This document shows positions 10,508-49,490 of a DNA stretch of 64,000 bases, piece after piece. The notes below the pieces were generated by a model that was not told where the DNA came from, made no database searches, and was given only the letters and a program-made list of their open reading frames with translations. The stretch comes from a virus, in the IMG/VR virus record IMGVR_UViG_3300035698_023018, positions 1-64,000 of that record. One strand, 5' to 3'. The position numbers and the translations under genes were made by a program. Numbering within the stretch: the first letter of the stretch is position 1; each line of letters starts with the position of its first letter.

Positions 10508-10528
10508 TCACGTACTCCTTATCTTTAC

Positions 10529-21612: not shown

Positions 21613-21855
21613 TTATTGTGCAGGAGGAAGTTTATCTTTGATTGCAGCCATTTTAGCCTCAATCGTCTCCGCTGCCTGAGTAATCGCCTCTTCAAGCGCG
21701 GCAGTAGTAGGCGTAATACCGAGCGCAGTTATTTCCGCGATGATTGTATCCTTCTGTTGACGTAAAGAAGTCAACTTCGTCTCAGTACGGATTTTTTCTT
21801 CCTTAAGCGAAGTTACCCTCGCCTCTAATTGATTTAACTCTGCTTCATTGGCCAC
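21613..21855 (-). CDS. Small coiled-coil protein of the Rad50 cluster
   Basis: An 80-residue protein that is almost entirely coiled coil (L-E-A-R-V-T-S-L-K-E-E-K followed by T-K-L-T-S-L-R-Q-Q-K-D-T) with a break at G-I-T-P-T. It overlaps the TOPRIM gene upstream by 11 bases and is followed immediately by the Rad50 C-half. It could supply arm segments to the split Rad50 complex or act as an adaptor; this is inference from composition and position. Confidence 0.6.
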   Translation of the reverse strand: MANEAELNQLEARVTSLKEEKIRTETKLTSLRQQKDTIIAEITALGITPTTAALEEAITQAAETIEAKMAAIKDKLPPAQ

Positions 21856-22522
21856 GATTACTACTCCTTAATAATGCTATAAACGCATCTTTTCCAACTT
21901 TAAGCATATAACTCGCCGGATCTTCCCCTGTAGGAAGATTCACGGCAACGACTTGTACTTGTATATCATCTGGATATATCTCTTCAAGATATTTTCGTAC
22001 TTTCAATTGCGCCTTCTGCCCCGCATCATCGGCATCGAATACAACATACACTTTTTGCGCATACCTCGACAAAATTCTAGCCACTGCAGGTTTAAATGCG
22101 ACGCCTGAAGATGCTACCGCATTAAGTATCCCGTACTGCTGGAGAATTAACGCATCCATTTGTCCTTCAACAAGAACAGCAACGCCAGTTTTAATGATTG
22201 CCATTTTTGCGAAATGATACAAATATAACAATCTACCTTTTTGGAATTCAGCAGATTCCTTTACATTGACATACTTCGCGGGAGCATTAATTAACGTACG
22301 CCCGGTCCATCCCGCAGGATCACCAAAAGGGAAGTGAATGGGGAATATTAACCGATCATGAAACCTATAACCTATCGTAGGATGAGAAGGAGCATACCCT
22401 AACTGGTACGTAAGAACAGACTCTTTAGATATCCCACGAGATTTCACATATGCTTTTACTTCAGGCGCAATTTTTAGTTGCTCATGATAGTAATCGATAG
22501 CCCGTTGAAGTTTACTCGACAT
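21845..22522 (-). CDS. DnaG-type primase, TOPRIM catalytic half
   Basis: A 225-residue protein that is the catalytic part of a DnaG primase. The N-terminus (Y-Y-H-E-Q-L...R-G-I-S-K-E-S-V-L-T-Y-Q-L-G-Y-A-P) is the TOPRIM N-terminal subdomain. V-L-V-E-G-Q-M-D (Glu119, Asp123) and V-F-D-A-D-D-A-G (Asp163, Asp165) are the metal-binding TOPRIM motifs. The usual CHC2 zinc domain is missing and is encoded separately at 38701-39390. It would make RNA primers with the DnaB helicase. The gene overlaps the Mre11-like gene by 11 bases. Confidence 0.88.
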   Translation of the reverse strand: MSSKLQRAIDYYHEQLKIAPEVKAYVKSRGISKESVLTYQLGYAPSHPTIGYRFHDRLIFPIHFPFGDPAGWTGRTLINAPAKYVNVKESAEFQKGRLLYLYHFAKMAIIKTGVAVLVEGQMDALILQQYGILNAVASSGVAFKPAVARILSRYAQKVYVVFDADDAGQKAQLKVRKYLEEIYPDDIQVQVVAVNLPTGEDPASYMLKVGKDAFIALLRSSNRGQ

Positions 22523-29188: not shown

Positions 29189-29201
29189 AATTACTACGGG
29201 A

Positions 29202-32048
29202 TCAGTCTTTTTTGTCATCGGCTAAAAACTCCTCAAGAATTTCAAAAAGTGAATCAACATTCTTTATAGGAATCTCGACTAATTTACCCCAATTCGGACC
29301 AACTTCAATCTCAGCTGCCATAGGTACTAACATACCATCAACGACTTCAGTCATCTTTTGATGGCACATTTTTATAACCGGCTTCATACAACTAGGATCA
29401 GCTTCAAGAATGATTGAATCATGTACGGTTAGAATAAGGTGGGCTTTCCATTCAGGATGAGCTTGTAGTTCTCTATGAATCTTAATCATAGCTACACCAG
29501 TAAGATCAGCTGCCCCACCTTGAATAGGTGCATTAACAGATTGACGAATTGCCATCGCAAACTTCTCTTTGTCAGCAAATTTCATCTGAGCATAAGGAAG
29601 TCTACGAACACGCCCAAAGTAACCTGGAGAATAACCTGTAGATTCAGTAAAGTGCTTAGTAATGTTCAACCACCTACGTGCAATAGGATATTTTGCAAAA
29701 AACTGTTCAATAATAGCTTCTGCGGCTTCTTTAGTAATCTTTACCTGCTTCGCAACAGATTCAGCACCACGTCCATACATCAAGCCAAACACTACAAACT
29801 TTGCAGCAGACCTCTGCTCTTTCGTGACATCCGCTTCAGGAATACTCCAGAATTGAGCAGCCGTAGCTCTATGGATATCCAAACCACTCTTAATATCATT
29901 AATCATGTCCATATCTTTAGATAACTCTGCCCACATTCTAAATTCAGCTTGAGCATAGTCCATCTGAATGATAAACCATTCAGGATATGTAGGAATGAAC
30001 GCTTTTTTGATATCTTTATTGGCTCGCGGAATATTCTGCAAGTTAGGTTGACTGGATGACAATCTACCAGTAACCGTGATGTGCTGGTTAAAGCTCGTAT
30101 GTATTCGGTCACCTGCGTCTGCCCGTTTTATCTGGCCAAGTACATAAGTCTTATGTAACTTACTCAATTTACGGTTTTCCTGAAGAAGCTTTACACAGGG
30201 ATGACTATTTTCTAAGGCCTCAAGAACTTCCTTATCCGTAGATAATTTATTACCCGCCTTTCCAGCCTTTTTAGGGAAAGGATGTTTAAGTTTAAGTACT
30301 GTGAACAATAATAATCTAAGATGATCATGAGAGTTCATATTAAAGGGTATAGGTTTACCATAATGTATCCCATACTCCTTCTGTGTATACTTCGGAGGTT
30401 TAGTATTAGTGGGATCAATCAAGTAATCTATCGTAGTCTTAAGACCCGCCCAACGTTCTTCCACCTTCTTCTGATTCTTTTTAAGAAGAAGTCCACAAAC
30501 TTTAGTTACTTCAGGCATAGCAAGAAGACCTTGCTCGAGTTCTTCTAATTTTGCCGCATATACTTTATCTAGTTCATGAAGATACGCTACATTTACCTTT
30601 GCACCACGATACTCCATAGTATCCAATACTCTACGTTGTTTCATCACAAGCGCATGGTAGTATCGAACCATATCAGGAATCTTACCGCCTAGCTGAGAGT
30701 AATCATAAGCTTGCGCTTCGTCATGTAATCTATTAGTAAGTACACGATGAACTCGGATAACAGCATCTGCATCCATTGCAGCATATGGCCAAAGAATCTC
30801 TGAGGGAATATCAGCATAAGTAATATCTTTATTCTCATCAGCTATGTCAACTAATTCACCTTCAAGACCTGTAATATCCCAATTAATTTCAGTTGTTTCA
30901 GGAGGATCAGCTTTCAGAAGCATTTTTTTGAGCTCTTTGATTCTATCCTTTCGAACTTTTTGAGCTGCTTGTAATCCTTTACGTCGATCTATCTTAAGTT
31001 GTTGTTTACACTTATCAAGCCCATCATCATAATTGCCCATATCAGTATAAAGGGCCGCCATTGCTTTCAAACCTTTTAGATCTAAGGCATTCTCATCACA
31101 TAAGGATTGTATCAACATAGTATCTTCGATAAGTCCAGCAATCATAATACCTGCAGTCATCAAAAACTTATGATCGAATGATATATTCTGAGCTATCCAA
31201 GTAATACTAGAATCAGCATAAATTGTTTTAAGCGCAGTATTAATTTCTTCAAGTTCATTAACAGACCAAATCGTAGTCTCTTTATATCCCAACAATGGAA
31301 GGACTACTGCAGTGTTTGTTTTCCATGAAAATGAATAACATAGAATACGATCATTTTGAAAATCAAAACCAGTTGTTTCCGTATCAAATGCGATAAGTTT
31401 TTGTTCCCGCATCTTCGCCATAAATTTTCTAAACTGATCTATATTCCGAATAGTCACATAACGAACTGCGGAGCGTATAGGAGCTTCGCCGCGAATAATT
31501 TGCCCAAACTCTTTAAAGTGTTTCCGGACACGTTCATTATAATTTGGATTTCGACTAACATACGATGGATGAGCACTTACTAAAATCTGCCGTGTAATAT
31601 CATTCTTAGTATAATCAACAGATTTACCAGCACGTGCCAATATCTTTACGTCTTTTTCCCCTGTAAGTGTCTCGTATACTTCCTTACCTAAAGTAATAAT
31701 TACTCGCGGATTAACTGTAGCAATTTCTTGATCCAAATACGTTCTACATGCGGCAAATTCTTGATCAGTTGGTGGGCGATTCTCCGGAGTTCTACATTTA
31801 CATGCATTACTTATATACACGTTTGCCCTATTAAGTCCTGCTTCTTGTAACCACATGTTAAGCAACTTAGTAAACTCTACATCTGATATAGGGCGGCCAT
31901 GTCTATCATCACTTGCGCTAGGTTCTCGACCTAAAATCATAATATCACACGGTTGAGGACCCTCCCCCCAAAGACAAACATTATTTACATTCACGTGTAG
32001 TTCACAACTTGAACAATTAACATTTCTCATGGCTTCACGTGCCTCCAT
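29202..32048 (-). CDS. DNA polymerase I with fused uracil-DNA glycosylase domain
   Basis: A 948-residue replicative polymerase. Residues 1-190 are a family-4-like uracil-DNA glycosylase with four Cys for an iron-sulphur cluster (C12, C15, C85, C101) and the motif K-C-R-T-P-E-N-R-P. A 3'-5' exonuclease follows with F-D-T-E-T-T (Asp222, Glu224). The polymerase has motif A Q-M-D-Y-A-Q-A-E-F-R, the O-helix K-F-V-V-F-G-L-M-Y-G-R and motif C L-T-V-H-D-S. Tyr in the O-helix predicts easy dideoxynucleotide use. Similar fusions are known in SPO1-like phages. ATG at 32048 is used; GGAGG before the ATG at 32030 makes that an alternative. Confidence 0.93.
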   Translation of the reverse strand: MEAREAMRNVNCSSCELHVNVNNVCLWGEGPQPCDIMILGREPSASDDRHGRPISDVEFTKLLNMWLQEAGLNRANVYISNACKCRTPENRPPTDQEFAACRTYLDQEIATVNPRVIITLGKEVYETLTGEKDVKILARAGKSVDYTKNDITRQILVSAHPSYVSRNPNYNERVRKHFKEFGQIIRGEAPIRSAVRYVTIRNIDQFRKFMAKMREQKLIAFDTETTGFDFQNDRILCYSFSWKTNTAVVLPLLGYKETTIWSVNELEEINTALKTIYADSSITWIAQNISFDHKFLMTAGIMIAGLIEDTMLIQSLCDENALDLKGLKAMAALYTDMGNYDDGLDKCKQQLKIDRRKGLQAAQKVRKDRIKELKKMLLKADPPETTEINWDITGLEGELVDIADENKDITYADIPSEILWPYAAMDADAVIRVHRVLTNRLHDEAQAYDYSQLGGKIPDMVRYYHALVMKQRRVLDTMEYRGAKVNVAYLHELDKVYAAKLEELEQGLLAMPEVTKVCGLLLKKNQKKVEERWAGLKTTIDYLIDPTNTKPPKYTQKEYGIHYGKPIPFNMNSHDHLRLLLFTVLKLKHPFPKKAGKAGNKLSTDKEVLEALENSHPCVKLLQENRKLSKLHKTYVLGQIKRADAGDRIHTSFNQHITVTGRLSSSQPNLQNIPRANKDIKKAFIPTYPEWFIIQMDYAQAEFRMWAELSKDMDMINDIKSGLDIHRATAAQFWSIPEADVTKEQRSAAKFVVFGLMYGRGAESVAKQVKITKEAAEAIIEQFFAKYPIARRWLNITKHFTESTGYSPGYFGRVRRLPYAQMKFADKEKFAMAIRQSVNAPIQGGAADLTGVAMIKIHRELQAHPEWKAHLILTVHDSIILEADPSCMKPVIKMCHQKMTEVVDGMLVPMAAEIEVGPNWGKLVEIPIKNVDSLFEILEEFLADDKKD

Positions 32049-33132: not shown

Positions 33133-34794
33133 CTACATCATTCCCGGAGGCATACCCGCCATCGACATCGGAGGGCCACCCGCATTTTGAGGGTTATCTT
33201 CTGTCGGTTCATCCACGACAACGGCATCCAAAGTCAATACCATACCTGCCACTGACGCAGCATTCTGTAATGCGTGAACCGCAACCTTGGTCGGATCAGT
33301 TACGCCCATCTCAAGGAGATCACCATATTCATCGGTTACGATATCGTAACCGTAAGGATATCCTTTCGCGGCTGTCACTATTTTCTCCATAATGATTTCA
33401 GGAGTTAGACCCGCATTAGTACAAATCTGGAATAAGGGAGCAAGCAATGCAGTCTTAACAATCCTATAGCCAGCCTCAATAGATTCACTCTGTTTTGAAT
33501 CGTTTTTGAGCCCATCTACTGAACGCACCGCGCCCAAGTAGGTTACACCTCCACCTGGAACAATCCCCTCCTCGACTGCCGCACGAGTAGCGTGCAGCGC
33601 GTCCTCTACGCGGGCTTTCTTTTCCTTCATCTCAATATCAGTAGCAGCACCAACACTCAAGACAATTACACCGCCAGATAATCGCGCCAACCGCTCTTGT
33701 GTCTTTTCCTTTTCAAAGTCACTATCAGTCGATTCAAGTTGTTGCTTCGTATAATCAATACGTTGCTGGATCTTCGCTTCTTCGCCTGTGCCTCCAATAA
33801 GAGTGCATACGTCCTTCGTCACCACTACATGGTCGACTGTTCCAAGATCTGCAGGAATAACCTCTTCCAAGCGCATCGAAAGATCTTTCGATATAAACTT
33901 ACCCCCAGTGACGACTGCCAGATCCTCAAGGGTTTCTCGTTGGTTATCTCCGAAATACGGTGCTTTGACCGCACAACACTTAAGCGTACCGCCCATCTTA
34001 TTCTGAATTAACGTCACTAGTGCATTACCTTCAACGTTCGCAGCGATGAAGAGAATAGGCTTACCTAACTGCGCTACCTTTTCAAGGAGAGGAACAATGA
34101 GTTTAACATTCCCAATTGTTTGATCTGTAACCAAAACGAAACAATCATCCAATGTACACGTCAAATTCGGGTTATTCATGAAGTATGGTGAAAGATATCC
34201 TCGAGGAATCTCCATACCTTCGACACCTTCTTTAGTAGTATCAAAGGTTTTCGACTCTTCGACTGTAATAACCCCGTCCATCCCAGCTTCCTTCATAGCA
34301 TCTGCAATAAGTTTACCCAAAATGGCGTCATTGTTCGCCGAGATCGTAGCAACTGCCTGTAAATCATCAGAGGTGATATTCTTTGATATCCCTCGGATTG
34401 AATTTACTGCCGCTTTTGTTGCCTCTTCAATACCAGTCTTGACAAACATAGGATTTGCACCCGCACTGATCAACTTCATTCCTTCAGTAATCATCGCTTG
34501 CGCTAAAATCGTAGCCGTAGTAGTACCATCACCTGCGGTGTCGGCAGTCTTCTGCGCAACCTCACGAATAAGTTGAGCACCTGCATTCTCAAACGGATCT
34601 GAGAATATAATTTCACGTGCCACAGATACCCCATCCTTCGTAATAGTGGGTGCACCACCAAACGGGTTACTCAACGCAACATTGCGACCCTTCGGACCTA
34701 AGGTGATTTTCACAGCATCCGCGAGTTTATCTATGCCCTTCTTGATGTGCGCCGTAGATTCATCACCAAATTTAATCTGTTTTCCCGGAGTCAT
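33133..34794 (-). CDS. groEL: GroEL-type chaperonin
   Basis: A 553-residue group I chaperonin subunit of normal length. The ATP site is clear (I-T-L-G-P-K-G-R-N-V near residue 30 and A-G-D-G-T-T-T-A-T near 85), as are G-V-I-T-V-E-E-S-K in the middle and G-G-G-V-T-Y-L-G near residue 410. The last residues are G-G-P-P-M-S-M-A-G-M-P-P-G-M-M, a Met/Gly/Pro tail like the host GGM tail. No GroES-like gene is next to it, so it may work with host GroES or alone. It probably folds a phage protein such as the capsid protein. Confidence 0.96.
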   Translation of the reverse strand: MTPGKQIKFGDESTAHIKKGIDKLADAVKITLGPKGRNVALSNPFGGAPTITKDGVSVAREIIFSDPFENAGAQLIREVAQKTADTAGDGTTTATILAQAMITEGMKLISAGANPMFVKTGIEEATKAAVNSIRGISKNITSDDLQAVATISANNDAILGKLIADAMKEAGMDGVITVEESKTFDTTKEGVEGMEIPRGYLSPYFMNNPNLTCTLDDCFVLVTDQTIGNVKLIVPLLEKVAQLGKPILFIAANVEGNALVTLIQNKMGGTLKCCAVKAPYFGDNQRETLEDLAVVTGGKFISKDLSMRLEEVIPADLGTVDHVVVTKDVCTLIGGTGEEAKIQQRIDYTKQQLESTDSDFEKEKTQERLARLSGGVIVLSVGAATDIEMKEKKARVEDALHATRAAVEEGIVPGGGVTYLGAVRSVDGLKNDSKQSESIEAGYRIVKTALLAPLFQICTNAGLTPEIIMEKIVTAAKGYPYGYDIVTDEYGDLLEMGVTDPTKVAVHALQNAASVAGMVLTLDAVVVDEPTEDNPQNAGGPPMSMAGMPPGMM

Positions 34795-38716: not shown

Positions 38717-39390
38717 GCGCTCTCCGTCACAGCTAATCTTTTTAGGAACTCTTCATGGAATTTATATAATTTACGCTGTAAAAGCAAGTGAGAAATGCCT
38801 GCAAATACCTTTTTATCAAAAATATATTGGGTACGGTCGTACCACCCCCAAAGAGATTCGAAATTCTGGTACAATATATCAAAAGGTACACCACTATTTC
38901 GCAAATTTGTATAAGTCTGTTTTGCCTTACGGTGGACCTCTGTTTCTATCTTTTCACGTACAGTAGCAAAACGTTCATCAGTCACTGGAATATTAACTTC
39001 TCTCAAGGTATATGTCCCTTTATACCCCACGCGTTCCGCTAATTTGTTTAACGCTGCAGGAAACTGAATATCGTCCATACGCATAACAAATTCAAATACA
39101 CTAGCACCTGCTTGGCAGCCAAAACAGTGGAATGTATTTGTCTCAACATAGAAACGCAAACTAGGCGTTTCACTGTCATCGTGAAACGGACAGAGACAAA
39201 CATAGTCTCCATTATTCTGAGGGACTAAATCTAAGCCATATTCCCACGCAAGGGAGACTAGATCTACTTTCGAAGCAACATCCGCGACATTAATAGTCGA
39301 CGGCGTTTGCTGCTGAGGTACTGCCCCCTGAATTGGATACTTCCGTTGTGGTTGATGATGCGGCTGATCCGCTGACATTCTGACTTTCAC
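38701..39390 (-). CDS. DnaG-type primase, CHC2 zinc-domain half
   Basis: A 229-residue protein that holds the DNA-recognition part of a DnaG primase. The CHC2 zinc site is C-P-F-H (C67, H70) plus F-H-C-F-G-C (C89, C92), followed by G-A-S-V-F-E-F-V-M and the family's A-L-N-K-L-A-E-R-V-G-Y. No TOPRIM domain is present; it is encoded 16 kb away at 21845. The GTG start at 39390 has AAGGA five bases upstream. The first 101 bases overlap the end of dnaB. The C-terminal half, about 100 residues, is helical and unassigned. Confidence 0.88.
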   Translation of the reverse strand: MKVRMSADQPHHQPQRKYPIQGAVPQQQTPSTINVADVASKVDLVSLAWEYGLDLVPQNNGDYVCLCPFHDDSETPSLRFYVETNTFHCFGCQAGASVFEFVMRMDDIQFPAALNKLAERVGYKGTYTLREVNIPVTDERFATVREKIETEVHRKAKQTYTNLRNSGVPFDILYQNFESLWGWYDRTQYIFDKKVFAGISHLLLQRKLYKFHEEFLKRLAVTESACIKM

Positions 39391-42037
39391 TTTGGTCCTT
39401 ACTTAGAGTCCTTACCATATTACTCCAACTACCTATCCAATTAATATCTCTCTTCCAACATAAATCTATACATGATCCCTGATGATATCTTCCTTTGATC
39501 ACTTCAAAGTGTACTTCGTGATTAACTTCATCTTTCTCATCTGCAAAAATACGGAAAATCGAATCACAATGATAAGAACTTGCATCCGAAAATGCAATAT
39601 GTTCAGTTCCCTGTTTCGTCGCCTTTAAAGACTCCCTGTTCATCTGTGCTGCAGTATAATAAATAGTCTTGTGCGCACGTGAACCTTCTTTTAATTCTCT
39701 AAACACGTGATCATACATTTCGGCTCGATCTTTAAATTTAGACATCGGTCGAATCAAATTGGCATAGTCAATTAGCACAAGATCAGGTACTTGACCGTGA
39801 AGTTTTTCAAATGCCAGCACTTCGGATTCAATTATTCCTGTAGTACATCCCTGAGGAATATCAATCAAGTACAACGGGTGCTGTACTTTTTTCTGATGCT
39901 GTAAAAATGCCATATATTTACGACGATTATACCCGACTAATTCGGTCCGCATAATCTCAGTCAATGGAATCTTAGCTTCCCGAGACTCCCACATATACTG
40001 TAAAATCTGCGCATCCATCTCAATTGTACAATACATTACCATCTTACCTGCTTTAGCTGCATTACAACCGATATTAAATAACGATCGGCTATTGTGCACA
40101 ATTATATCATTAGTCACAAAATTATGTGTTGAAGATATTTCTAAATCATATGTGTCCGCTAATCCCGTACATTCAATACTTTTAACTGTATCCCAAAAAA
40201 TATCGGCTGTTGCAAGCTTTTTAAGAGATTGACTATTTAATACATCTGCTAACTCTTCAACTTTATCACGGCATATACCATATTTATTCCAATCGTGAGA
40301 ATAATTAAATTCAAATTTACATCCAGCGTTAGCTATCTTTTTACGATCAATTTTATCTATTCGCGTAATAGGTAAATATGGTTTGATTAAATTCATTGGA
40401 ATTGTATCAACATTAGTATTTTGTTGCGTCCCGTATAAAAATTTCAACGCTTTGGTTACTCTTGCACATTTTTTACCCACAAAATATGGACCAATTTCAT
40501 TAAGAAATTTTGCACGACAACTACCTATAACTTCGAGACTCCCCACTATAAACTTTTTACCATTACACGTTGTGCAATGCTCCCAATATCGAGTAAGGAT
40601 ACCGAACCGCAATAATAAATGGCCAACCTGTCGAGTTAATTTAGGAGAACCTGTCTCAAATGTAATACGTGATAATGTCTCACCATAAATACTTCCATCA
40701 CAACTCCAGAGAACGGCTAAAAATACTGCTAACTTTTCTTTCGGAAGTTTAAAAATTTCATCCGGAATTGTTTTTTGTACCGATTTTTTACCTAATAATC
40801 CAAACTCCTTTAACCACCCTTTAATAGGATTAACAGTCAATCGACGATATTTATTTTTACCGTAACGTACTTTATCTGGAGTCAATTCCTTCCCTACAAT
40901 TACTAAAGTACGTTTATATTCGGGTAACGTTGTACCATGAACGGTTACCTTTAAATCCGCAATATTACTATCTTCGATAACTCTACAGAAATCCGCGCGG
41001 ATGTCTAAATCATAATTAGTGAACCCAATAGATTGAGTAGATAAATTCCCTTCAGCAATTAAGTATGCTAATAAACGTACTTGGTTTGAAGGTAATTTAC
41101 TTTTACCGAATATAGGAATTTCGCGAGGAACTGCAATACGATCACCAATAGCAACAGATTGTAAGGGTTGCCATCCCTCTACGGTAAGTAGTGGATGGGT
41201 ATGAGTAACTTCAATAGTACGTCCAGATTTAGTCGTAACTTTAAATACTTCCTGTTCTCCCGAATACATATAATTGACAGGTTGTACAGTACGTAATTTG
41301 TTCCAATTATTAGATAAAGTCAAAACTTTACCTTCTTGGGAATTGACGACGTCTTGAATTGGACGCAACGTGCCGTCAGCCATTACTAATTGACTATCAA
41401 ATTTTATGCATTTACCACTGCCCGTGCGGCCGATAACAAGATACAGCTGTCCGGGGAACATTCCACCCGTTAACTTATCGATCTCTTTAATACCATAAGG
41501 TACACCACGATATTTCTCTGGATGTTCCTCCCTGTCAATATAATTCTGAATGCGTTCATCAGGATCTGCAAATACTGAAGTACGTTCAACAATAGATGTA
41601 GTACTCGTCGTCAAAATCTGTTGAGCAATACTTGACGCAATCTTTGCAGGATCAGTACCTGTTTCAAGACCCTCCACAATTTCCGCATTTACTGAACGAA
41701 GTGCACGATTAGCAGCACATTCCTTAAGCTCATCTATGTAAAACTTTACATACTTGTCACATCCAAGAGAATGCAACTCCCCATATAACAAAAGAATGTC
41801 AGTCTTATTATCAGGATCATGTTTTGATAACCACTTGTCCAAAATATTCCGATCAAGTGACTTGTAATATTTTCGATAGAAGCGGTCTAGAATTTCAAAC
41901 ATATATTGATGACGCGCGTCGTTAAAATCAGCCAGACCAAGATTATTAATCTGCTGATTCAATACGTTGTCATCAATCAGAAGAGCAGCGAGTACACGTT
42001 TTTCGGCTGTAGGATTATTAAATATATTCTCAGCCAC
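39290..42037 (-). CDS. dnaB: DnaB-type replicative helicase with intein
   Basis: A 915-residue precursor of the hexameric helicase. A GTG at 42037 is chosen because AGAAGGA lies 5 bases before it and the frame then begins A-E-N-I-F-N-N-P-T-A-E-K-R-V-L-A-A-L, typical of DnaB N-termini. The frame is open to 42124 but overlaps the upstream gene. The P-loop G-R-T-G-S-G-K / S is interrupted by a 440-residue intein. Walker B is V-L-I-D-Y-A-N-L-I, and later motifs include A-A-Q-M-N-R-E-S. After splicing about 475 residues remain. The C-terminal tail is Ser/Thr rich. Confidence 0.93.
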   Translation of the reverse strand: MAENIFNNPTAEKRVLAALLIDDNVLNQQINNLGLADFNDARHQYMFEILDRFYRKYYKSLDRNILDKWLSKHDPDNKTDILLLYGELHSLGCDKYVKFYIDELKECAANRALRSVNAEIVEGLETGTDPAKIASSIAQQILTTSTTSIVERTSVFADPDERIQNYIDREEHPEKYRGVPYGIKEIDKLTGGMFPGQLYLVIGRTGSGKCIKFDSQLVMADGTLRPIQDVVNSQEGKVLTLSNNWNKLRTVQPVNYMYSGEQEVFKVTTKSGRTIEVTHTHPLLTVEGWQPLQSVAIGDRIAVPREIPIFGKSKLPSNQVRLLAYLIAEGNLSTQSIGFTNYDLDIRADFCRVIEDSNIADLKVTVHGTTLPEYKRTLVIVGKELTPDKVRYGKNKYRRLTVNPIKGWLKEFGLLGKKSVQKTIPDEIFKLPKEKLAVFLAVLWSCDGSIYGETLSRITFETGSPKLTRQVGHLLLRFGILTRYWEHCTTCNGKKFIVGSLEVIGSCRAKFLNEIGPYFVGKKCARVTKALKFLYGTQQNTNVDTIPMNLIKPYLPITRIDKIDRKKIANAGCKFEFNYSHDWNKYGICRDKVEELADVLNSQSLKKLATADIFWDTVKSIECTGLADTYDLEISSTHNFVTNDIIVHNSRSLFNIGCNAAKAGKMVMYCTIEMDAQILQYMWESREAKIPLTEIMRTELVGYNRRKYMAFLQHQKKVQHPLYLIDIPQGCTTGIIESEVLAFEKLHGQVPDLVLIDYANLIRPMSKFKDRAEMYDHVFRELKEGSRAHKTIYYTAAQMNRESLKATKQGTEHIAFSDASSYHCDSIFRIFADEKDEVNHEVHFEVIKGRYHQGSCIDLCWKRDINWIGSWSNMVRTLSKDQSESQNVSGSAASSTTTEVSNSGGSTSAANAVDY
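40091..41410 (-). other. Intein in the DnaB P-loop with LAGLIDADG endonuclease
   Basis: A 440-residue intein starting with C-I-K-F-D-S-Q-L-V and ending I-I-V-H-N before Ser of the extein. It splits the Walker A motif between Lys and Ser, so no ATPase can form before splicing. The block B-like T-H-T-H-P-L-L and the LAGLIDADG-type motifs L-L-A-Y-L-I-A-E-G-N and L-A-V-L-W-S-C-D-G-S show an intact splicing and homing design. A C-x2-C pair (H-C-T-T-C-N) lies in the endonuclease region. Confidence 0.93.
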
Positions 42038-42341
42038 GCGGTTCCTTCTCCCACCGTTCCAATGCAACATCCCAGGTGACGTCATCTGGACAATCATTGT
42101 GCCCCGCGGTGCACGTAGTTGCATGCGCCCATACTCGTATTACCATATGATACGCAAGTATTTTAGGTAACCTAAACGCAATTTTTTGCCAAATCACATG
42201 CTTATCCAAATGTTTGCACATATTTAAACGAATCATCCATGTATACCATATCCATCCACGTATACGCTGAGGAATGGTAGGAGGTATATCATCTTTAAGA
42301 CCTAGTGCTTCTTGTACTTTTCGTTCTCTTCTACTAATCAT
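42030..42341 (-). CDS. Small protein with EXXVQEALG N-terminal motif
   Basis: A 103-residue protein starting M-I-S-R-R-E-R-K-V-Q-E-A-L-G-L, followed by an unrelated region with W-I-W-Y-T-W-M, H-x-x-H-like residues and C-T-A-G-H-N-D-C near the end. The first 15 residues match the N-termini of at least four other small proteins in the window (at 42347, 45441, 45521 and 49251). Beyond that point the proteins differ. The gene overlaps dnaB by 8 bases. Function is unknown. Confidence 0.65.
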   Translation of the reverse strand: MISRRERKVQEALGLKDDIPPTIPQRIRGWIWYTWMIRLNMCKHLDKHVIWQKIAFRLPKILAYHMVIRVWAHATTCTAGHNDCPDDVTWDVALERWEKEPRG

Positions 42342-42346
42342 ATATT

Positions 42347-42634
42347 TTAGACACTCAGTTCCTTCTCCTGCCTTCGTTTCAACGCCATTCGAGTATCACA
42401 AAGTCGCTGCTCATCGATTACTAAATTCGAATGTATTCGACCAGCAAACTCAGGATGCTTTGCATTTATTGTAGCATCCAATTTTACCTGAGCATCGTCA
42501 TGATCCATAGCATAAATATCAAAGTGATCCTCAAAAACCTGCCCAGTATCAAGATTCTCAGTACGCGCATGAATTGAATAAAGTTGAGGTAACGTCCCTA
42601 AAGCTCTTTGAATTGCAAACTCTTGATCAATCAT
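42347..42634 (-). CDS. Small protein with EXXIQRALG N-terminal motif
   Basis: A 95-residue protein beginning M-I-D-Q-E-F-A-I-Q-R-A-L-G-T-L-P. The rest, with beta-like segments (Y-S-I-H-A-R-T-E-N, F-D-I-Y-A-M-D) and a basic C-terminus, was not recognised. ATG at 42634 overlaps the stop of the helicase-loader gene by 8 bases; a GTG at 42646 is an alternative. It belongs to the set of small proteins that share the N-terminal motif and lies next to another member. Confidence 0.6.
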   Translation of the reverse strand: MIDQEFAIQRALGTLPQLYSIHARTENLDTGQVFEDHFDIYAMDHDDAQVKLDATINAKHPEFAGRIHSNLVIDEQRLCDTRMALKRRQEKELSV

Positions 42635-43406
42635 CAAAAAACTCACTTTCTAATTGCCCAAGAATTTGGGGTCTATAATTTCCGGTGAACGTAATTTCAG
42701 CGAGCCTCTCAGAAAACATTGCGGCAATCGTTTTACCTACAGTATGTGCGATATCGGATTTCATAACATTCGATGTTACGATTAAAGGCTTCTTAAGATA
42801 ATCACACCGTTTCTTAAACAACGGCAATAATATCCTCTGTACATTATCATGTTGATCTTGAAAACCTTTATCAATCTCATCGACCACTAAAAAGTCTGTC
42901 TCTTGAATTACTTTCTCTAAATCTCGTTTGACTTCAGGATCTCTCAAGGCAGCAAATGACGCATCTACTAAATCAGACATTAATACAAAATATCCTGAAT
43001 AACCATCTTCCAACGCCCGCTTTAATATAAGCGTAGCAATGAAACTTTTACCTGTACCATTACCGCCCTGTATGAATAATCCAAAACCTGTCTCAAGAGC
43101 TTTAGCGTGTTGCTTAGTATATTGAGCTACCCGATTAAGATTTTCCGCGTTCTCTTGCTGAAAGCCGGGATCAATATTTTGTTTTGTCAAGTCTCTGAAA
43201 GCTGGAGGGATATGCGCATGTGCCAACGCATACGCGTTATTAAATCTAATTAAACATATACACTTAACGAATTCCTCTTCGCCAAGAATACCTGTACCAT
43301 TGCAGACTGTACAGTCAACACAATATTTCTGTTGCATTGCATGAATATCGTCTATTGAAACCTTAAACCGATCAGATTCGAAACGTAGAGGAATTTTCTT
43401 AATCAT
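42627..43406 (-). CDS. DnaC-like helicase loader (AAA+ ATPase)
   Basis: A 259-residue AAA+ protein of the DnaC/DnaI/IstB type. A Cys-rich N-terminal zinc site (C29, C32, C35, C49, C51) is followed by I-P-P-A-F-R-D, then Walker A G-G-N-G-T-G-K-S at residues 114-121 and Walker B F-L-V-V-D-E-I-D. Sensor-1 V-T-S-N and the E-R-L-A-E arginine-finger region are also present. It would load the phage DnaB helicase, encoded nearby, onto single-stranded DNA. It overlaps the gene on either side by 1 and 8 bases. Confidence 0.9.
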   Translation of the reverse strand: MIKKIPLRFESDRFKVSIDDIHAMQQKYCVDCTVCNGTGILGEEEFVKCICLIRFNNAYALAHAHIPPAFRDLTKQNIDPGFQQENAENLNRVAQYTKQHAKALETGFGLFIQGGNGTGKSFIATLILKRALEDGYSGYFVLMSDLVDASFAALRDPEVKRDLEKVIQETDFLVVDEIDKGFQDQHDNVQRILLPLFKKRCDYLKKPLIVTSNVMKSDIAHTVGKTIAAMFSERLAEITFTGNYRPQILGQLESEFFDD

Positions 43407-43996
43407 TAAAATGCGTCCTCCAACGCTTTGGCAAGATCTTTAGTACTCTTTGGAGTTTGAGCTGCAAGTTGTTTGAATTTCTCCGGATCGGTTTGACTTT
43501 GCGATTTTGTAGATGCTAACCATTGATATAACATCGTATCACTTGAAATCAAAGGAATAGTCGCAATGAATTTTTTATTGAACTTCTTCGCGAACAACCA
43601 TTCAATCATCTCTTTATACACTGAGTTACTCTTGATCTCTTCATGCGCATTGCGGAATTGGCTAATTCTTATTGAAAATACTTCCCAATGTTTTCCACCA
43701 ATATTGAAATTTTGCTCATATTTATCATTATATAACTCTTGGAAAAGCCTAAGGAAATGATGAGTATTCCATTTCTCAACAGGCATATCCATATTGATCT
43801 TACCTTTAGTCCGCTTTACTACTAATCCCTTCTTCGGTGGATCGTATACAGTATCAGGTCTATTCTTAAGCTGCTTGTTCTCTTGCTCTACATCTTTATG
43901 CATTGCAGAAAGTTGTGCAATACGGTAACGCATAAAGTATATAGCTTTGTCTACTTGGACCTCATCGTCTCTAATCAAAAATCTATCAACATTCAT
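43406..43996 (-). CDS. Hypothetical replication-cluster protein
   Basis: A 196-residue protein with a short coiled coil near the N-terminus (K-D-V-E-Q-E-N-K-Q-L-K) and a helical, aromatic-rich domain in the middle (H-H-F-L-R-L-F-Q-E-L-Y-N-D-K-Y). The last 40 residues are likely flexible. It overlaps the helicase-loader gene by 1 base and the SF2 helicase gene by 4 bases. The place directly before a DnaC-like gene suggests an initiator or loader partner, but no family was recognised. Confidence 0.6.
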   Translation of the reverse strand: MNVDRFLIRDDEVQVDKAIYFMRYRIAQLSAMHKDVEQENKQLKNRPDTVYDPPKKGLVVKRTKGKINMDMPVEKWNTHHFLRLFQELYNDKYEQNFNIGGKHWEVFSIRISQFRNAHEEIKSNSVYKEMIEWLFAKKFNKKFIATIPLISSDTMLYQWLASTKSQSQTDPEKFKQLAAQTPKSTKDLAKALEDAF

Positions 43997-45465
43997 ACTA
44001 TAACTTCCTTATACGTGATACGAAAACTAGCTTCACTCTTATACAATCGTTCTCGCTTCTTTGAATGTCGTCGTAAATACTTATATGGATCAAGGAAGTC
44101 CACTACAATCGCATATTCTTTTCCTTCGGCGGGAGTCAGACATCTTAACCGTTGAAACACTTTGATAGCCGATTCACCCCCTGATGCAATAATAGTAGCG
44201 CCGAGTGATGGAATATCAATACCTTCGTCACCAAGCGTAGTTATCAAAATAGGAAGTTTTCCTATTCGTAACTGATGCCAAAGAGAAGCACGATCAGCGG
44301 ATTTACTATATGAAAATTTCGCGCTGGGGATTAAAGAGGCAAGAGCTTTACCGTGCTTAATTTTCGTTACTAAAATCATACATGTTTTCCCACGGTCTTT
44401 CAAACTGTGAGCAATCTTTGCTATCGCGTCATTACGTAACTTGTTGTCGACAATTGCCTGCTTATAAATCGTGGCATAAACAGTCTTATCTTCAAATGGA
44501 ATGACTTTGGGCATCTTGATCAAGTGTACGGTAGGTCGTACTAGATATCCAGAATCAATCAGTTTGCTGTAATCGATCTCATATATAATAGGTCCTAGTA
44601 AGCCTTCCAGTAACATATTTGTGTTATCTTCTCGAAAAGGAGTACCCGAACAACCCAAGATATATTCTGCGGAGTAAACTTTATTCTGAAGAATATATTT
44701 GTGGGTAGCACTCACCGCGTGATGGCATTCGTCAACCCATACAAACTTCGCGGTTTCGACCAATCGTTGTATGTCCAATTTTCGGGCGAGCGCTGGAATC
44801 TGCTCCATTTGCTTTTTCGGAATCTTCTCTTTAATGTCATACGCAGCACTTACCGATTGAATGGTCGCAACCGTTATTGGCTGTATATCACATTCGCCAT
44901 CACCTATAAGGCCGACTTTTACACTGGGCAGGAATTGACTAAACTTTTCTATAGTCTGTTTTGCAATATCAATACTTTGACAAAGACTCAGTACCGGTAG
45001 AATGCCCAGCCGCTGTACTAACATAATTTCCATAATCGTCTTACCGCTTCGCGGCCGAGCCCAAATAATACCACGTTTCAACTTTTGGGATATCTGTACA
45101 GCGTCTTCTTGATATGGTCGAGATTCAAGAATTAAACCGGGAATAGGTTGAGGAACATATTCCATTCTATCATCCTCGATATTATATGGAATACTGTATT
45201 GTTTGAGCGCTTCCTCAACGTATGGCAGTAATCCTGTAAGAAATTTACCTGTCTTGACACTGAACAAATGATTATGCCCGTCCCATTGTTCTTGGATAAA
45301 CCTCTTGTTGCTCATAGCCTTGATAAAGTGACTATTGTGCACTTCATAGGATAGGAGAGCGTCGAGATAACTCCACACTTCAGTCATACCTGGATAGTTA
45401 GTATCGACGGGAGTTAACTGGCTAAATATAGTTTTGACTTTTAGGGTTGCTGCGAATTGTTCCAT
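43993..45465 (-). CDS. SF2 DNA helicase, UvsW-like
   Basis: A 490-residue helicase. In order it has a Q-like region R-P-Y-Q-E-D-A, Walker A A-R-P-R-S-G-K-T (residues 136-143), motif II V-D-E-C-H-H-A, motif III C-S-G-T-P-F, motif V G-D-E-G-I-D-I-P-S and motif VI K-V-F-Q-R-L-R-C-L. This is the DEAD/DEAH-type layout of phage UvsW, RecG-like remodelling helicases that unwind branched DNA and R-loops. An N-terminal domain of about 110 residues precedes the core. It overlaps the next gene upstream by 25 bases. Confidence 0.88.
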   Translation of the reverse strand: MEQFAATLKVKTIFSQLTPVDTNYPGMTEVWSYLDALLSYEVHNSHFIKAMSNKRFIQEQWDGHNHLFSVKTGKFLTGLLPYVEEALKQYSIPYNIEDDRMEYVPQPIPGLILESRPYQEDAVQISQKLKRGIIWARPRSGKTIMEIMLVQRLGILPVLSLCQSIDIAKQTIEKFSQFLPSVKVGLIGDGECDIQPITVATIQSVSAAYDIKEKIPKKQMEQIPALARKLDIQRLVETAKFVWVDECHHAVSATHKYILQNKVYSAEYILGCSGTPFREDNTNMLLEGLLGPIIYEIDYSKLIDSGYLVRPTVHLIKMPKVIPFEDKTVYATIYKQAIVDNKLRNDAIAKIAHSLKDRGKTCMILVTKIKHGKALASLIPSAKFSYSKSADRASLWHQLRIGKLPILITTLGDEGIDIPSLGATIIASGGESAIKVFQRLRCLTPAEGKEYAIVVDFLDPYKYLRRHSKKRERLYKSEASFRITYKEVIV

Positions 45466-45665
45466 ACAACCTCATTACTAGTCTCATCTACGATAAATTT
45501 TAGCGTACCGTCAAACTTACTTAAACATTTTTGAGCGGCTTCAGGAGACACTGCACGAATTGTCCGTACGTCATAGTGAGTTGCGCGTGTCTCTGGTTTA
45601 AAATACCCTGCATACTTTCTGAGCAATCCGAGAGCTTTTTGAATTTTCTTTTCTTTTTTATCCAT
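45441..45665 (-). CDS. Small protein with EXXIQKALG N-terminal motif
   Basis: A 74-residue protein starting M-D-K-K-E-K-K-I-Q-K-A-L-G-L-L. The rest is charged and includes V-R-T-I-R-A-V-S-P-E-A-A-Q-K-C-L, with no recognised family. ATG at 45665 puts the shared motif at residues 8-13, as in its relatives; a GTG at 45704 is an alternative. The first 145 bases overlap the end of the gene at 45521-45883 in a different frame, and it overlaps the helicase gene by 25 bases. Confidence 0.6.
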   Translation of the reverse strand: MDKKEKKIQKALGLLRKYAGYFKPETRATHYDVRTIRAVSPEAAQKCLSKFDGTLKFIVDETSNEVVWNNSQQP

Positions 45666-45883
45666 TGTAATGTGGTCGAGTGAATATACCTTGTGCCTTC
45701 CCACATAATCTGTCCGCTACAAATTGGGCTGTTGCGCACATCGTGCAGATAACCCTCTTCCTCCCGCCCCCAGGGTGTTGATATCCACTTCTCGTCAACA
45801 GGAAAATCTTTGTGGCAGAGACTGCAGGTAAATTCGGGTAACGACCCTACAGCTTTTTGAACCCGTATTTCTTGTTCATCCAT
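45521..45883 (-). CDS. Small zinc-finger protein with EXXVQKAVG N-terminal motif
   Basis: A 120-residue protein starting M-D-E-Q-E-I-R-V-Q-K-A-V-G-S-L-P. C-S-L-C (about residues 18-21) and a downstream H-D-V and C-S-G could bind zinc. ATG at 45883 overlaps the stop of the acetyltransferase gene by 8 bases, a common spacing here. The last 48 residues are translated from DNA that also encodes the small gene at 45441-45665, so the C-terminus may be an over-run caused by a lost stop. Confidence 0.55.
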   Translation of the reverse strand: MDEQEIRVQKAVGSLPEFTCSLCHKDFPVDEKWISTPWGREEEGYLHDVRNSPICSGQIMWEGTRYIHSTTLQWIKKKRKFKKLSDCSESMQGILNQRHAQLTMTYGQFVQCLLKPLKNV

Positions 45884-46478
45884 TATCGGGGTGGAAGGTG
45901 TCGAGCGAATATTTATAAAGCCGCTTTGCGGGCGCGCCCCCATACACCTGACCCGGTGTAGTATCGAGGTTTACAACGGATTGACTAAATATCACACAAT
46001 CTTCCCCAATAGTCACACCAGGGTTAATTGTAATTAGTCCCCCTTGCAACCATACTCTATCTTTAAGTACCGTCTTTGCATATCTATTTGGAAATAAATT
46101 ATTCACTACTTGAGGAACTCGACATACATGTGACCAAATCTGACAACTAAATCCAATGCAACAATCTTTACCTATCTCAAGATCTCCCGTTGCATCGAGT
46201 GCCGTATATTGAGCTACCCACGAGTTTTCACCAATAGTACAATCACCTTTCCCGTGAATTGTCACATGATTATGTAAGGTAACATTGTCTCCGAGAACAA
46301 CTGTGCCGCCTACGGCAATTTTTACGTCATCTTCAATACGTACGTTATCTCCAATAATTAATATTAGAGGTTTTCCAGAATGTCCCGAGAATTTTATCTT
46401 TTGACCGCCCCGACATCCTACAAAATCTGCGTCACGTGTATGCGCCATAGTTATAGTGTATGTATCCGTACTACTCAT
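45876..46478 (-). CDS. Hexapeptide-repeat acetyltransferase
   Basis: A 200-residue left-handed beta-helix acyltransferase. Repeats of the form [LIV]-G-x-x-x-x run through the middle (I-G-D-N-V-R-I-E-D-D, L-G-D-N-V-T-L-H-N-H, I-G-E-N-S-W, I-G-K-D-C-C-I-G), with N-P-G-V-T-I-G-E-D-C-V and the closing Y-G-G-A-P-A-K-R. It would transfer an acetyl group, most likely to a sugar. It begins the block of nucleotide-sugar genes and overlaps the aminotransferase gene by 8 bases. The exact substrate is unknown. Confidence 0.8.
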   Translation of the reverse strand: MSSTDTYTITMAHTRDADFVGCRGGQKIKFSGHSGKPLILIIGDNVRIEDDVKIAVGGTVVLGDNVTLHNHVTIHGKGDCTIGENSWVAQYTALDATGDLEIGKDCCIGFSCQIWSHVCRVPQVVNNLFPNRYAKTVLKDRVWLQGGLITINPGVTIGEDCVIFSQSVVNLDTTPGQVYGGAPAKRLYKYSLDTFHPDNG

Positions 46479-47610
46479 AAAATCCCTTTATACAATCTGC
46501 CATATATTGAACATCTTCATCAGTTACCCACCAGCCACACGGTAAAGAAATATGTTTTTCCATAAACGCTTTTACACCTGGCAACTCTATTGGATCAGCA
46601 TGGAAGCCACTATACACATCATTATTGACGTGCATCTGTGACGCATGAATATCTTTAGCTCGTAAAAAGTCTAGTAATTCCGGAATATTATCACCAATGA
46701 ATGTTGAAACCCATGCAGCTGTAGGTCCTCGCCAAGATCTCTGCATCACATCAACAAGCGCTTTAGTGAGATGTAAATCATTCATAATGTACGTAGACAG
46801 CCGCGCGGACAAACCGGGATCTTTCATCTGCGCAGTACCAATGCAACCCGCTACGTTATTCATATGCATTTTAAAACCAATTTCAGGCACATCCGAACGC
46901 CAATCGATTTCACCATTAGTTGTGCGGAATCCATCTCTATCAAGACCGAACCATTTTAATCTATTCGCACGTGCCATATCATCGCCATTTCTAAATGCAA
47001 TAGCGCCACCGTCAGCAGTAGTTATTTGTTTAATCGCTTGAAAGGAGAAACAGATATAGTCACCATAAGTACCATCACCTAATATGCCCCTGTGCGCATA
47101 AGTGCCGAATGCCTGAGCCGCGTCAACAATAAGTTTAATACCATGCTCTAAACAAATTCCATTAACTTCACGTAATGGGCCAAGATCGCCTCCCCAACAT
47201 ACGTAAATAAGAACTTTGATATATGGATTAGCTTTTATACTTGATATCAATGCGTCAGGTGTAATCATTCCATGTATCGGATCTACATCGACCCACACTG
47301 GTGTAGCGCTAAGAGTTTCAATAGGTGCATTCGTAGCCAGACAAGTCATTGACGATGAGAACACTTTATCTCCGGCTTTAACCCCAGCCAATCTAAGGGC
47401 TATTTGTAAACTACTCGTACACGAATTCGTAGTCAAGACATTTTTATTATGTAAATATTCACGAAGATATTTTTCGAATTCCTTAACATTCTCACCTTCC
47501 GCAATATATCCCGAGGCTAAAACATCTCCGAGCGCTTCACCGAGATGACATTCATTACCCATTTTATCTGTAGCATTTTGAGCAACATAAACTTTAAATA
47601 ATGGAATCAT
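46471..47610 (-). CDS. DegT-family sugar aminotransferase
   Basis: A 379-residue PLP enzyme. ATG at 47610 is preceded by GAGGAG six bases upstream. The internal aldimine Lys lies in C-F-S-F-Q-A-I-K-Q-I-T-T-A-D-G-G-A, preceded by the D-A-A-Q-A-F-G PLP-contact motif. The first part has T-N-S-C-T-S-S-L-Q-I-A-L. Members convert 4-keto (or 3-keto) nucleotide sugars to amino sugars. With the CapD/PseB-like dehydratase and acetyltransferases nearby it could make an N-acetylated 4-amino-4,6-dideoxy sugar, which is an inference. Confidence 0.88.
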   Translation of the reverse strand: MIPLFKVYVAQNATDKMGNECHLGEALGDVLASGYIAEGENVKEFEKYLREYLHNKNVLTTNSCTSSLQIALRLAGVKAGDKVFSSSMTCLATNAPIETLSATPVWVDVDPIHGMITPDALISSIKANPYIKVLIYVCWGGDLGPLREVNGICLEHGIKLIVDAAQAFGTYAHRGILGDGTYGDYICFSFQAIKQITTADGGAIAFRNGDDMARANRLKWFGLDRDGFRTTNGEIDWRSDVPEIGFKMHMNNVAGCIGTAQMKDPGLSARLSTYIMNDLHLTKALVDVMQRSWRGPTAAWVSTFIGDNIPELLDFLRAKDIHASQMHVNNDVYSGFHADPIELPGVKAFMEKHISLPCGWWVTDEDVQYMADCIKGFYE

Positions 47611-47620
47611 TGTATTCTCC

Positions 47621-48562
47621 TCAATAACTCTCTTCAATACCCATTTGAATATTACATACCTGCAGTCTTAGATTTTCTTCCGCATTGACGTTGTACGCAA
47701 TCATCTGCACAGCTTCGTCAGTTTGAGTAAATCCCATACCCTGAATTAGTGCGCCATTACTTTGATTATAAGCGCACCAAATATTCAACTTACTCCATCC
47801 ATGTTGTTTACATAAAGACTTGGCTGCCCCAAGAAGTGCAACAGTTCCAGGTCCCTCCAATCCAATTATATGTGCCCAATCCTTGTACTGTTTTAGTACA
47901 GCAAAGCCCCTGGTCGAACCCTTTAATATGATTGGAATGTAGTGGCTCTGTGGATGATAAATCCAACGAGTATGTTGCCATTTATAAAATGCGCCTTCTA
48001 CTTCTTTAATGGAATGTTCATAAAATATATACGAAGAATTTTCTGCGGGACCTAAATAAGTATTAAATTTAGGGCCGTAGTAATCTTCTCGATGTATTGG
48101 AAGTTTTACAGCATCAAATTCATATACAGCAATATTTTGAACCGTATACCATCCTGCTTGAAGATGTCCTCCAACTACGGATCGACCTCGTTGAGGAAAG
48201 CCCACGATATATTCATACTCCTCTAATTCCTTCTCAGCTTGTAAAGCAAATTTACTGAGATCAGTGAATAATCCTATACGTCTGTGATCCTTCTGAATAC
48301 CTACAGCAAAACATCTACCTACGTCAATGACCTTACGATTTAAGCAAAATTGTCGCGGCTCTACTCCCCAAATACCTACTAACACATCACCATCATTCAC
48401 GTATGCACCATATATACGCACCTTTCCCGCATGTACTGTATTGAACCACCAATCAATCCATTCAAACGATATATCGCTTGAAGGAAATAATTCATTATGC
48501 AACGCTTTGTACGCAAAAAAGTCCGTTACTAAGTCGAACTTATACAAGATGTAACCCACCAT
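47621..48562 (-). CDS. GNAT-like N-acetyltransferase
   Basis: A 313-residue protein. The N-terminal half contains a GNAT-type core with V-G-R-C-F-A-V-G-I-Q-K-D-H-R-R-I-G-L-F as the acetyl-CoA-binding motif. The C-terminal half includes a second acyltransferase-like segment (I-W-C-A-Y-N-Q-S-N-G-A-L-I-Q-G-M-G-F). This double arrangement occurs in some sugar and peptidoglycan-related acyltransferases. It overlaps the SDR gene by 23 bases and follows the aminotransferase by 10 bases, so amino-sugar acetylation is the likely role. Confidence 0.65.
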   Translation of the reverse strand: MVGYILYKFDLVTDFFAYKALHNELFPSSDISFEWIDWWFNTVHAGKVRIYGAYVNDGDVLVGIWGVEPRQFCLNRKVIDVGRCFAVGIQKDHRRIGLFTDLSKFALQAEKELEEYEYIVGFPQRGRSVVGGHLQAGWYTVQNIAVYEFDAVKLPIHREDYYGPKFNTYLGPAENSSYIFYEHSIKEVEGAFYKWQHTRWIYHPQSHYIPIILKGSTRGFAVLKQYKDWAHIIGLEGPGTVALLGAAKSLCKQHGWSKLNIWCAYNQSNGALIQGMGFTQTDEAVQMIAYNVNAEENLRLQVCNIQMGIEESY

Positions 48563-49241
48563 TTAAAGGTAGAATTTGTCCCGCCATATAAGGAGTATTG
48601 ATTAAGAAGTCAATGGAATTCATAACCTCTTCAAAATTCCCAAATCGACCCATTGGAATAGTCTTCTTTAATGCCTCTTGATGTGCTTCAGGTACTTGTG
48701 CAATCATTCCGTATTCAGTGTAACCTAAACCAATCCCAAACGGTAAGATGTTGTTCTTAATTCCTTCAGGAAGTAAGCCCCTCACCATTCCTTCCATAGC
48801 AGATTTAGTTATACTATACCCCAGTGCGCCAAAAACAGGGCGATGGGCAACGACGGAACTTACGAAAATAAGTCTACCAAACTGTTTCTCTTTCATCTGG
48901 GGCCATAATTCACGTATAAGATGAAGTACGCCCGAGCAATTTACTTCAAACTGTTGTTGAATGCCTGCAAAAGTAGTCTTACTTATTGATGCATTTATAG
49001 TAATTCCTGCTAAGTGAATTAGATGAATATCTTCATCTTTTATTTGCGGCATTCTTGAAACAAGTTTAGCCATAATATTCGAAGAAGTAGTTAACTCATA
49101 CCGAATATAGAGAGTATCTGTAGGCCATGGCGTACTAGGACAATTAGTACCATACAACCCTACAACACATTGCTCACGACGTACTAGTTCTTCGATTACT
49201 TTTCGCCCTAATCCTCCCGAAGCTCCGGTAACTATGTACAT
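48540..49241 (-). CDS. Short-chain dehydrogenase/reductase
   Basis: A 233-residue classical SDR enzyme. The cofactor loop is V-T-G-A-S-G-G-L-G at the N-terminus, the H-L-A-G-I motif stands in for NNAG, and the catalytic set is S-S (F-V-S-S-V) with Y-S-I-T-K. The C-terminus G-Q-I-L-P-L-N-G-G is typical. AGGAAAAG precedes the ATG. In the glycan block it would reduce or epimerise a keto-sugar. The actual substrate is unknown. Confidence 0.85.
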   Translation of the reverse strand: MYIVTGASGGLGRKVIEELVRREQCVVGLYGTNCPSTPWPTDTLYIRYELTTSSNIMAKLVSRMPQIKDEDIHLIHLAGITINASISKTTFAGIQQQFEVNCSGVLHLIRELWPQMKEKQFGRLIFVSSVVAHRPVFGALGYSITKSAMEGMVRGLLPEGIKNNILPFGIGLGYTEYGMIAQVPEAHQEALKKTIPMGRFGNFEEVMNSIDFLINTPYMAGQILPLNGGLHLV

Positions 49242-49250
49242 AACTTTTCC

Positions 49251-49490
49251 TTACACTACTTCTTTGAGATTTTTTGATTCGCAATAATTACACCGAAATA
49301 TCACAGGTCCCGTAGCTACAATTTCTGATAAGCCCGTATAAATATCGTGAAACATACCATGATCACACTCCCATGAGAGAGTTCTCTTAGCTAAGACCTT
49401 ACCACAATTTCGGCACTCCACATGTTCTAAAGTCCCAAGAGCCCGCTGTATTGCCTGTTCTTTCTTACTTATCTCGATTGCGTTTCCCAA
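49251..49490 (-). CDS. Small zinc-finger protein with EXXIQRALG N-terminal motif
   Basis: A 79-residue protein with I-S-K-K-E-Q-A-I-Q-R-A-L-G-T-L in its first 21 residues, followed by C-R-N-C-G-K-V-L and, near the end, C-N-Y-C, together probably a zinc ribbon. The only start in frame with the shared motif is a TTG at 49490, within the end of the upstream cupin gene (22-base overlap). Function is unknown; it is the most distant member of the motif-sharing set. Confidence 0.55.
   Translation of the reverse strand: MGNAIEISKKEQAIQRALGTLEHVECRNCGKVLAKRTLSWECDHGMFHDIYTGLSEIVATGPVIFRCNYCESKNLKEVV

What the first reader, a model, noticed from the sequence alone, without database searches (positions are those of the whole stretch)
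42300..49451. Five otherwise unrelated small proteins share an N-terminal E-x-x-[IV]-Q-x-A-[LV]-G motif
Small genes at 42030, 42347, 45441, 45521 and 49251 start with V-Q-E-A-L-G, I-Q-R-A-L-G, I-Q-K-A-L-G, V-Q-K-A-V-G and I-Q-R-A-L-G. In four the motif begins at residue 8 or 9 of the chosen start. A charged residue set with a conserved Glu precedes it, and T/L/S-L often follows. After it the sequences diverge completely, and only two have zinc-finger Cys. A conserved leader on different bodies suggests a docking helix that recruits different effectors to one partner, or a gene family that swaps C-termini.
Basis: seen in the sequence. Interest (0 to 1): 0.75.

Follow-up and report, generated by a model that had tools for sequence, protein, structure and literature searches.

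The report
Portable docking tag on phage proteins
One lineage of large uncultivated phages has put the same roughly 12-residue peptide onto more than 60 otherwise different proteins, usually at the front but sometimes at the back or in the middle, which looks like a shared address or docking label that plugs many accessory proteins into one unknown partner.

Summary
Confirmed and extended. All five window genes carry K/Q/R-E-x-x-[IV]-Q-x-A-[LV]-G. In five contigs of the same phage lineage, 62 ORFs score as tagged, far above reversed or shuffled proteins. Two contigs (G001, G004) share an exact 127-base end and are probably one ~190-kb phage with about 43 tagged genes. The tag is not only a leader: 46 are N-terminal, 8 C-terminal (three within 2-3 residues of the stop), 8 internal. 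Tag-masked bodies fall into 49 families by phmmer, fewer by profiles: zinc ribbons, alpha-solenoids, two membrane proteins, a NADAR fusion, a DnaG-type primase. The G001 primase is the window's primase plus a 16-residue tag. Synonymous codons inside the tag are scrambled, so selection acts on the peptide, not the DNA. In window/G001 pairs the tag core is kept while bodies drop to 18-47% identity (shared proteins: 72% median). The tag was absent from all more distant relatives tested and not found elsewhere in IMG/VR by exact patterns. Best reading: a short helical docking peptide that recruits fast-evolving accessory proteins to one hub. The hub is unidentified.

The parts
42294..42329 (-). 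Tag RERKVQEALGLK, residues 5-16 of gene 42030-42341
   Evidence: translation
42030..42341 (-). Tagged gene, 103 aa, Trp-rich body, probably helical; ortholog G001 67351-67653 (47% body identity)
42590..42625 (-). Tag QEFAIQRALGTL
42347..42634 (-). Tagged gene, 95 aa from ATG at 42634, small beta-alpha-like body (inferred); positional ortholog G001 67643-67999 (18% body identity)
45621..45656 (-). Tag KEKKIQKALGLL
45441..45665 (-). Tagged gene, 74 aa from ATG at 45665; ortholog G001 70822-71073 (31% body identity)
45839..45874 (-). Tag QEIRVQKAVGSL
45658..45883 (-). Tagged zinc-ribbon gene (ORF listed as 45521-45943); out of frame in its second half relative to G001 71265-71486, real extent probably about 45658-45883
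49428..49463 (-). Tag KEQAIQRALGTL
49251..49490 (-). Tagged zinc-ribbon gene, 79 aa; ortholog G001 74778-75041 (27% body identity)
21845..22522 (-). DnaG/Toprim-type primase without tag; its G001 ortholog (77% identical) carries the tag as an extra 16 N-terminal residues
43993..45465 (-). SF2-type helicase between the tagged genes, used to find the relatives (80% identical in G001, about 51% in untagged G002)

Best explanation
The tag is a short linear docking peptide, about 12 residues and probably a two-to-three-turn helix closed by its Gly. It is grafted onto many small, fast-evolving accessory proteins and at least one replication enzyme, so that all can bind one common receptor (phage or host) in the infected cell. 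Shown: the peptide is selected as protein, occurs at either end or inside many different bodies, is kept while bodies change, and was found only in one phage lineage. Inferred: that it binds a single partner, that this partner is a hub of host take-over or replication rather than a virion part, and that tagging lets new bodies be plugged in quickly. The receptor is unknown.
For: 62 tagged ORFs in five contigs, 46 N-terminal, 8 C-terminal, 8 internal, 49 body families with the tag masked. 54 regex hits against 0 reversed and 0.09 shuffled; the weakest accepted tags score 13-17 by PSSM against a reversed maximum of 11.3. Codons at the invariant Gly are GGT15/GGC14/GGA12/GGG11 and all four Ala codons are used, so the peptide and not the DNA is conserved. 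Information peaks at E 2.9, Q 3.4, A 2.9, G 3.0 bits, with [IV] and L one turn apart, a helical-face pattern. The G001 primase equals the window primase plus an N-terminal tag; the G002 outgroup lacks it. Window/G001 pairs keep 4-5 of 5 core residues while bodies are 18-47% identical, against a 72% median for shared proteins. Two membrane proteins carry the tag after their predicted transmembrane helices. AlphaFold2 draws the tag as a helix ending just before the Gly (primase residues 2-15, pLDDT about 50; solenoid protein residues 4-13, pLDDT about 86).
Against: In the solenoid model the tag helix is predicted as the first helix of the body itself, so in those proteins it may be structural. 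Some bodies are diverged paralogues, so the number of independent acquisitions is below 49. Some internal tags may come from gene fusions or from wrongly chosen starts.
Confidence: 0.6

Rival explanations
1. Capsid-targeting signal: the tag packs proteins into the prohead, so they are injected with the DNA, as the T4 capsid targeting sequence does for internal proteins with diverse bodies.
For: The T-even precedent is close: internal proteins are a highly diverse set sharing only the CTS (PMC3012670). The phage has a head maturation protease. Most tags are at the extreme N-terminus.
Against: C-terminal and internal tags, tags on transmembrane proteins and on a primase. No tag in the late structural block of G001 at 91-130 kb.
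Confidence: 0.12
2. Solenoid cap: the peptide is the first helix of HEAT/LRV-type proteins of this phage. It is used in cis there, and in other proteins it docks in trans onto such a solenoid protein, which is the hub.
For: AlphaFold2 places the tag as a confident first helix of a HEAT-like protein (PDB matches to alphaRep/HEAT proteins at Z 5-6; viral LRV proteins top the BFVD list without significant E-values). Several bodies are LRV or solenoid-like.
Against: G002 solenoid (LRV-like) proteins lack the tag. The model rests on three sequences. Zinc-ribbon and membrane bodies have no solenoid.
Confidence: 0.12
3. Degradation or remodelling tag read by an AAA+ machine, which times the removal of early proteins.
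For: The best-conserved tagged gene (G004 47256, G005 16270, G003 5572) lies directly behind or overlaps an AAA ATPase gene in all three.
Against: The AAA ATPase also exists in tagless G002. Degrons rarely need a helix with four near-invariant residues (own knowledge), and the tag also sits internally.
Confidence: 0.08
4. A mobile DNA repeat inserted in frame into genes (like Rickettsia palindromic elements) or a shared 5' expression element.
For: Many genes, variable position in the ORF.
Against: Synonymous sites are randomised even within one contig, and C-terminal copies cannot be 5' elements.
Confidence: 0.03

Closest known systems
T4 capsid targeting sequence (CTS) of internal proteins
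   Same: A short conserved peptide shared by phage proteins with highly diverse, rapidly changing bodies (PMC3012670).
   Different: The CTS is N-terminal (own knowledge) and serves prohead packaging; this tag also sits C-terminally and internally, on membrane proteins and a primase. No sequence comparison with the CTS was run.
Bacterial microcompartment encapsulation peptides
   Same: Short terminal helices grafted onto unrelated cargo, at the N- or C-terminus (PMC12339742).
   Different: About 18-residue amphipathic helices with a disordered linker. Here about 12 residues with four near-invariant residues (E, Q, A, G); microcompartment genes were not searched for and none was noticed.
Protein import into the phage nucleus (Chimalliviridae)
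   Same: A phage that sorts a subset of its proteins.
   Different: There no conserved signal sequence was found; a recognition surface is used (PMC11087766). No shell protein was looked for or noticed here.
Rickettsia palindromic elements
   Same: One short peptide-coding unit found in many ORFs (own knowledge).
   Different: RPEs are DNA repeats; the tag shows no nucleotide-level conservation beyond the protein.

Membership tests
T4-type capsid targeting sequence | strictly N-terminal | tested here: not met
   8 C-terminal and 8 internal tags of 62
T4-type capsid targeting sequence | carriers packaged in the virion and processed by the head protease | not testable with these tools
   no proteomics; a head maturation protease gene is present
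T4-type capsid targeting sequence | one peptide on diverse, fast-evolving bodies | tested here: met
BMC encapsulation peptide | short helix at a terminus of cargo | tested here: inconclusive
   helix predicted in two models with different confidence; most tags terminal
BMC encapsulation peptide | co-encoded shell proteins | not tested
   no dedicated search was run
Mobile in-frame DNA element (RPE-like) | conservation of the nucleotide sequence | tested here: not met
   codon table
Single diverged protein family | bodies homologous throughout | tested here: not met
   49 clusters with the tag masked; primase, NADAR, LRV, zinc-ribbon and membrane bodies; some paralogy shown
Short linear docking motif | binds a defined partner through the peptide | not testable with these tools
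   no partner known; needs pull-down

The most novel reading that the evidence does not exclude
A lineage-wide protein sorting code: a phage that labels about 15% of its proteins, mainly accessory and perhaps host-take-over factors, with one docking peptide recognised by a dedicated hub, so that any new gene becomes useful by acquiring the tag.
Probability: 0.35. Interest if true: 0.88.

Novelty: new variant of a known kind. Interest (0 to 1): 0.77.

Why it matters
Phage genomes are full of small orphan proteins with no clue to function. A peptide shared by dozens of them in one genome offers a handle: finding its one receptor would place all of them in a pathway at once. If the hub is a host machine, it marks a takeover complex built from plug-in parts; if it is a phage machine, it is a sorting system not described in phages as far as the searches here could show. 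The peptide could also become a compact affinity tag.

Tried and rejected
Pfam, PHROGs, PADLOC and PDB sequence searches of the tagged proteins gave names for only a few bodies and none for the tag. tblastn against cultured phages found nothing convincing for three tagged proteins. A strict codon pattern in 85k prokaryote species gave 3 chance hits. Further codon patterns in IMG/VR returned only the same lineage plus one more contig (G006) and chance ORFs. The search for related loci with the 45521 protein found no relative. A de novo leader search in G002 found no alternative tag above its reversed control. Foldseek with the solenoid model gave no significant match; VIA Z values of 5-6 for helical repeats are only suggestive. 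Paper searches found no report of such a shared tag. DNA-repeat and 5' regulatory-element explanations were rejected on codon and position grounds. Pattern scans are exact-match and codon-limited, so absence elsewhere is not proven.

Full report
Check of the observation. The window lies in a virus record of 66,647 bases. All five proteins carry the motif at the stated places. With tag-proximal ATG starts (42341, 42634, 45665, 45883) the conserved Glu is residue 5-6; the 49251 gene has a TTG start and Glu at residue 11. In shuffled proteins of this contig the strict motif is expected 0.002 times. One listed body is misleading: ORF 45521-45943 is out of frame after the first CxxC compared with G001 71265-71486, and the matching CxxC tail is read in ORF 45658-45798. 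So 45521 and 49251 are both tag plus zinc ribbon.

Relatives. The neighbouring helicase found a 130-kb contig (G001, 80% identical) and a 168-kb contig (G002, about 51%). A codon pattern for the tag in IMG/VR then brought three more contigs: G003, G004 and G005. All six contigs are one phage lineage (window and G001 share 117 ORFs at 72% median identity; G002 is more distant). G001 and G004 come from the same metagenome and share an exact 127-base end. With the gene order of G005, which bridges them, this makes one genome of about 190 kb likely.

Extent. A position-specific score over all ORFs accepts 62 tagged proteins: G004 24, G001 19, G005 12, window 5, G003 2. A six-frame scan adds one clear case (G001 22043, minus) and two weak ones. 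G002 has none (best 9.7; reversed-protein maximum 11.3). A DNA pattern over 28 relatives chosen by capsid protein or helicase found the tag only in G001, G003, G005 and a further contig G006, all with capsid protein at least 83% identical to G001. Records at 73-75% or below had none, and the reversed-pattern control was zero throughout. Several of those records are short structural fragments, so their zeros are weak; G002 (168 kb) is the strong negative.

Position and bodies. Forty-six tags are N-terminal (Glu at residue 5 in 18), 8 are near the C-terminus and 8 internal. G004 5921-6295, G005 10366-10581 and G005 10578-10799 end 2-3 residues after the Gly. Two G001 membrane proteins (7753-8127, 8131-8496) carry the tag behind their predicted transmembrane helices. 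With the tag masked, phmmer gives 49 body clusters. Profiles reduce this: seven tagged genes in tandem at G004 28.6-30.5 kb are largely one diverged helical family. Pfam names a NADAR domain (assigned by sequence to G005 5096-5893, fused to a tag and a helical domain), a DnaG/Toprim primase, an LRV solenoid and zinc ribbons. The bodies are therefore not one family.

Level of selection. Codons for the invariant residues follow no shared nucleotide sequence: Gly GGT15/GGC14/GGA12/GGG11, all four Ala codons, six Leu codons. This excludes a recent DNA repeat; C-terminal copies exclude a 5' expression element. The G001 primase aligns to the window primase (77%) with 16 extra N-terminal residues that are the tag; the G002 ortholog lacks it. 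Parsimony suggests gain in the G001 branch. In five window/G001 pairs the tag core is kept 4-5 of 5 while bodies are 18-47% identical.

Structure. AlphaFold2 draws the tag as a helix in the primase (residues 2-15, low confidence) and in the solenoid protein (residues 4-13, high confidence, helix ending just before Gly). The solenoid model resembles HEAT/alphaRep proteins at middling Z.

Interpretation. The simplest account is a portable docking helix for one receptor. T4 internal proteins show that phages can keep one targeting peptide on a changing set of bodies (PMC3012670), and microcompartment encapsulation peptides show short helices doing this at either terminus (PMC12339742). The tag differs from both in placement and, as far as tested, context. 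Capsid targeting is disfavoured by C-terminal, internal and membrane-protein tags and by the lack of tags in the structural block. A solenoid-capping hub and an AAA-read tag remain possible. The receptor is unknown.

Noticed in passing
window 7627-9726 (-), also 10529-13705 (-): A structural-region protein repeats [SRH][KH]LNM[KR]K about five times, with similar LN[ML] motifs in the next protein: possibly head-protease sites or another repeated short motif.
   Followed up: partly
window 45521-45943 (-): The tagged zinc-ribbon gene reads out of frame in its second half relative to its G001 ortholog; it could be a sequencing error or a real frameshift.
   Followed up: partly
G005 5096-5893 (-): NADAR-domain protein fused through the tag to a helical domain that is a stand-alone tagged gene in G004 (29594-29938).
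   Followed up: partly
G004 28577-30514 (-): Tandem array of seven overlapping tagged genes with diverged helical bodies.
   Followed up: yes
window 4606-7626 and 39290-42124 (-): Large insertions with intein-like sequence in the terminase-like and DnaB-like helicase genes; GIY-YIG-like homing endonuclease genes at 3449, 13713 and 17787 (read from the sequence, not tested).
   Followed up: no
window 33133-34794 (-); G004 44773-45066 (+): The phage lineage encodes GroEL-like and GroES (Cpn10) proteins; no G002 homologue of GroEL was found by blastp.
   Followed up: no
G004 45857-47251 (+): AAA ATPase gene directly upstream of the best-conserved tagged gene in G003, G004 and G005.
   Followed up: partly
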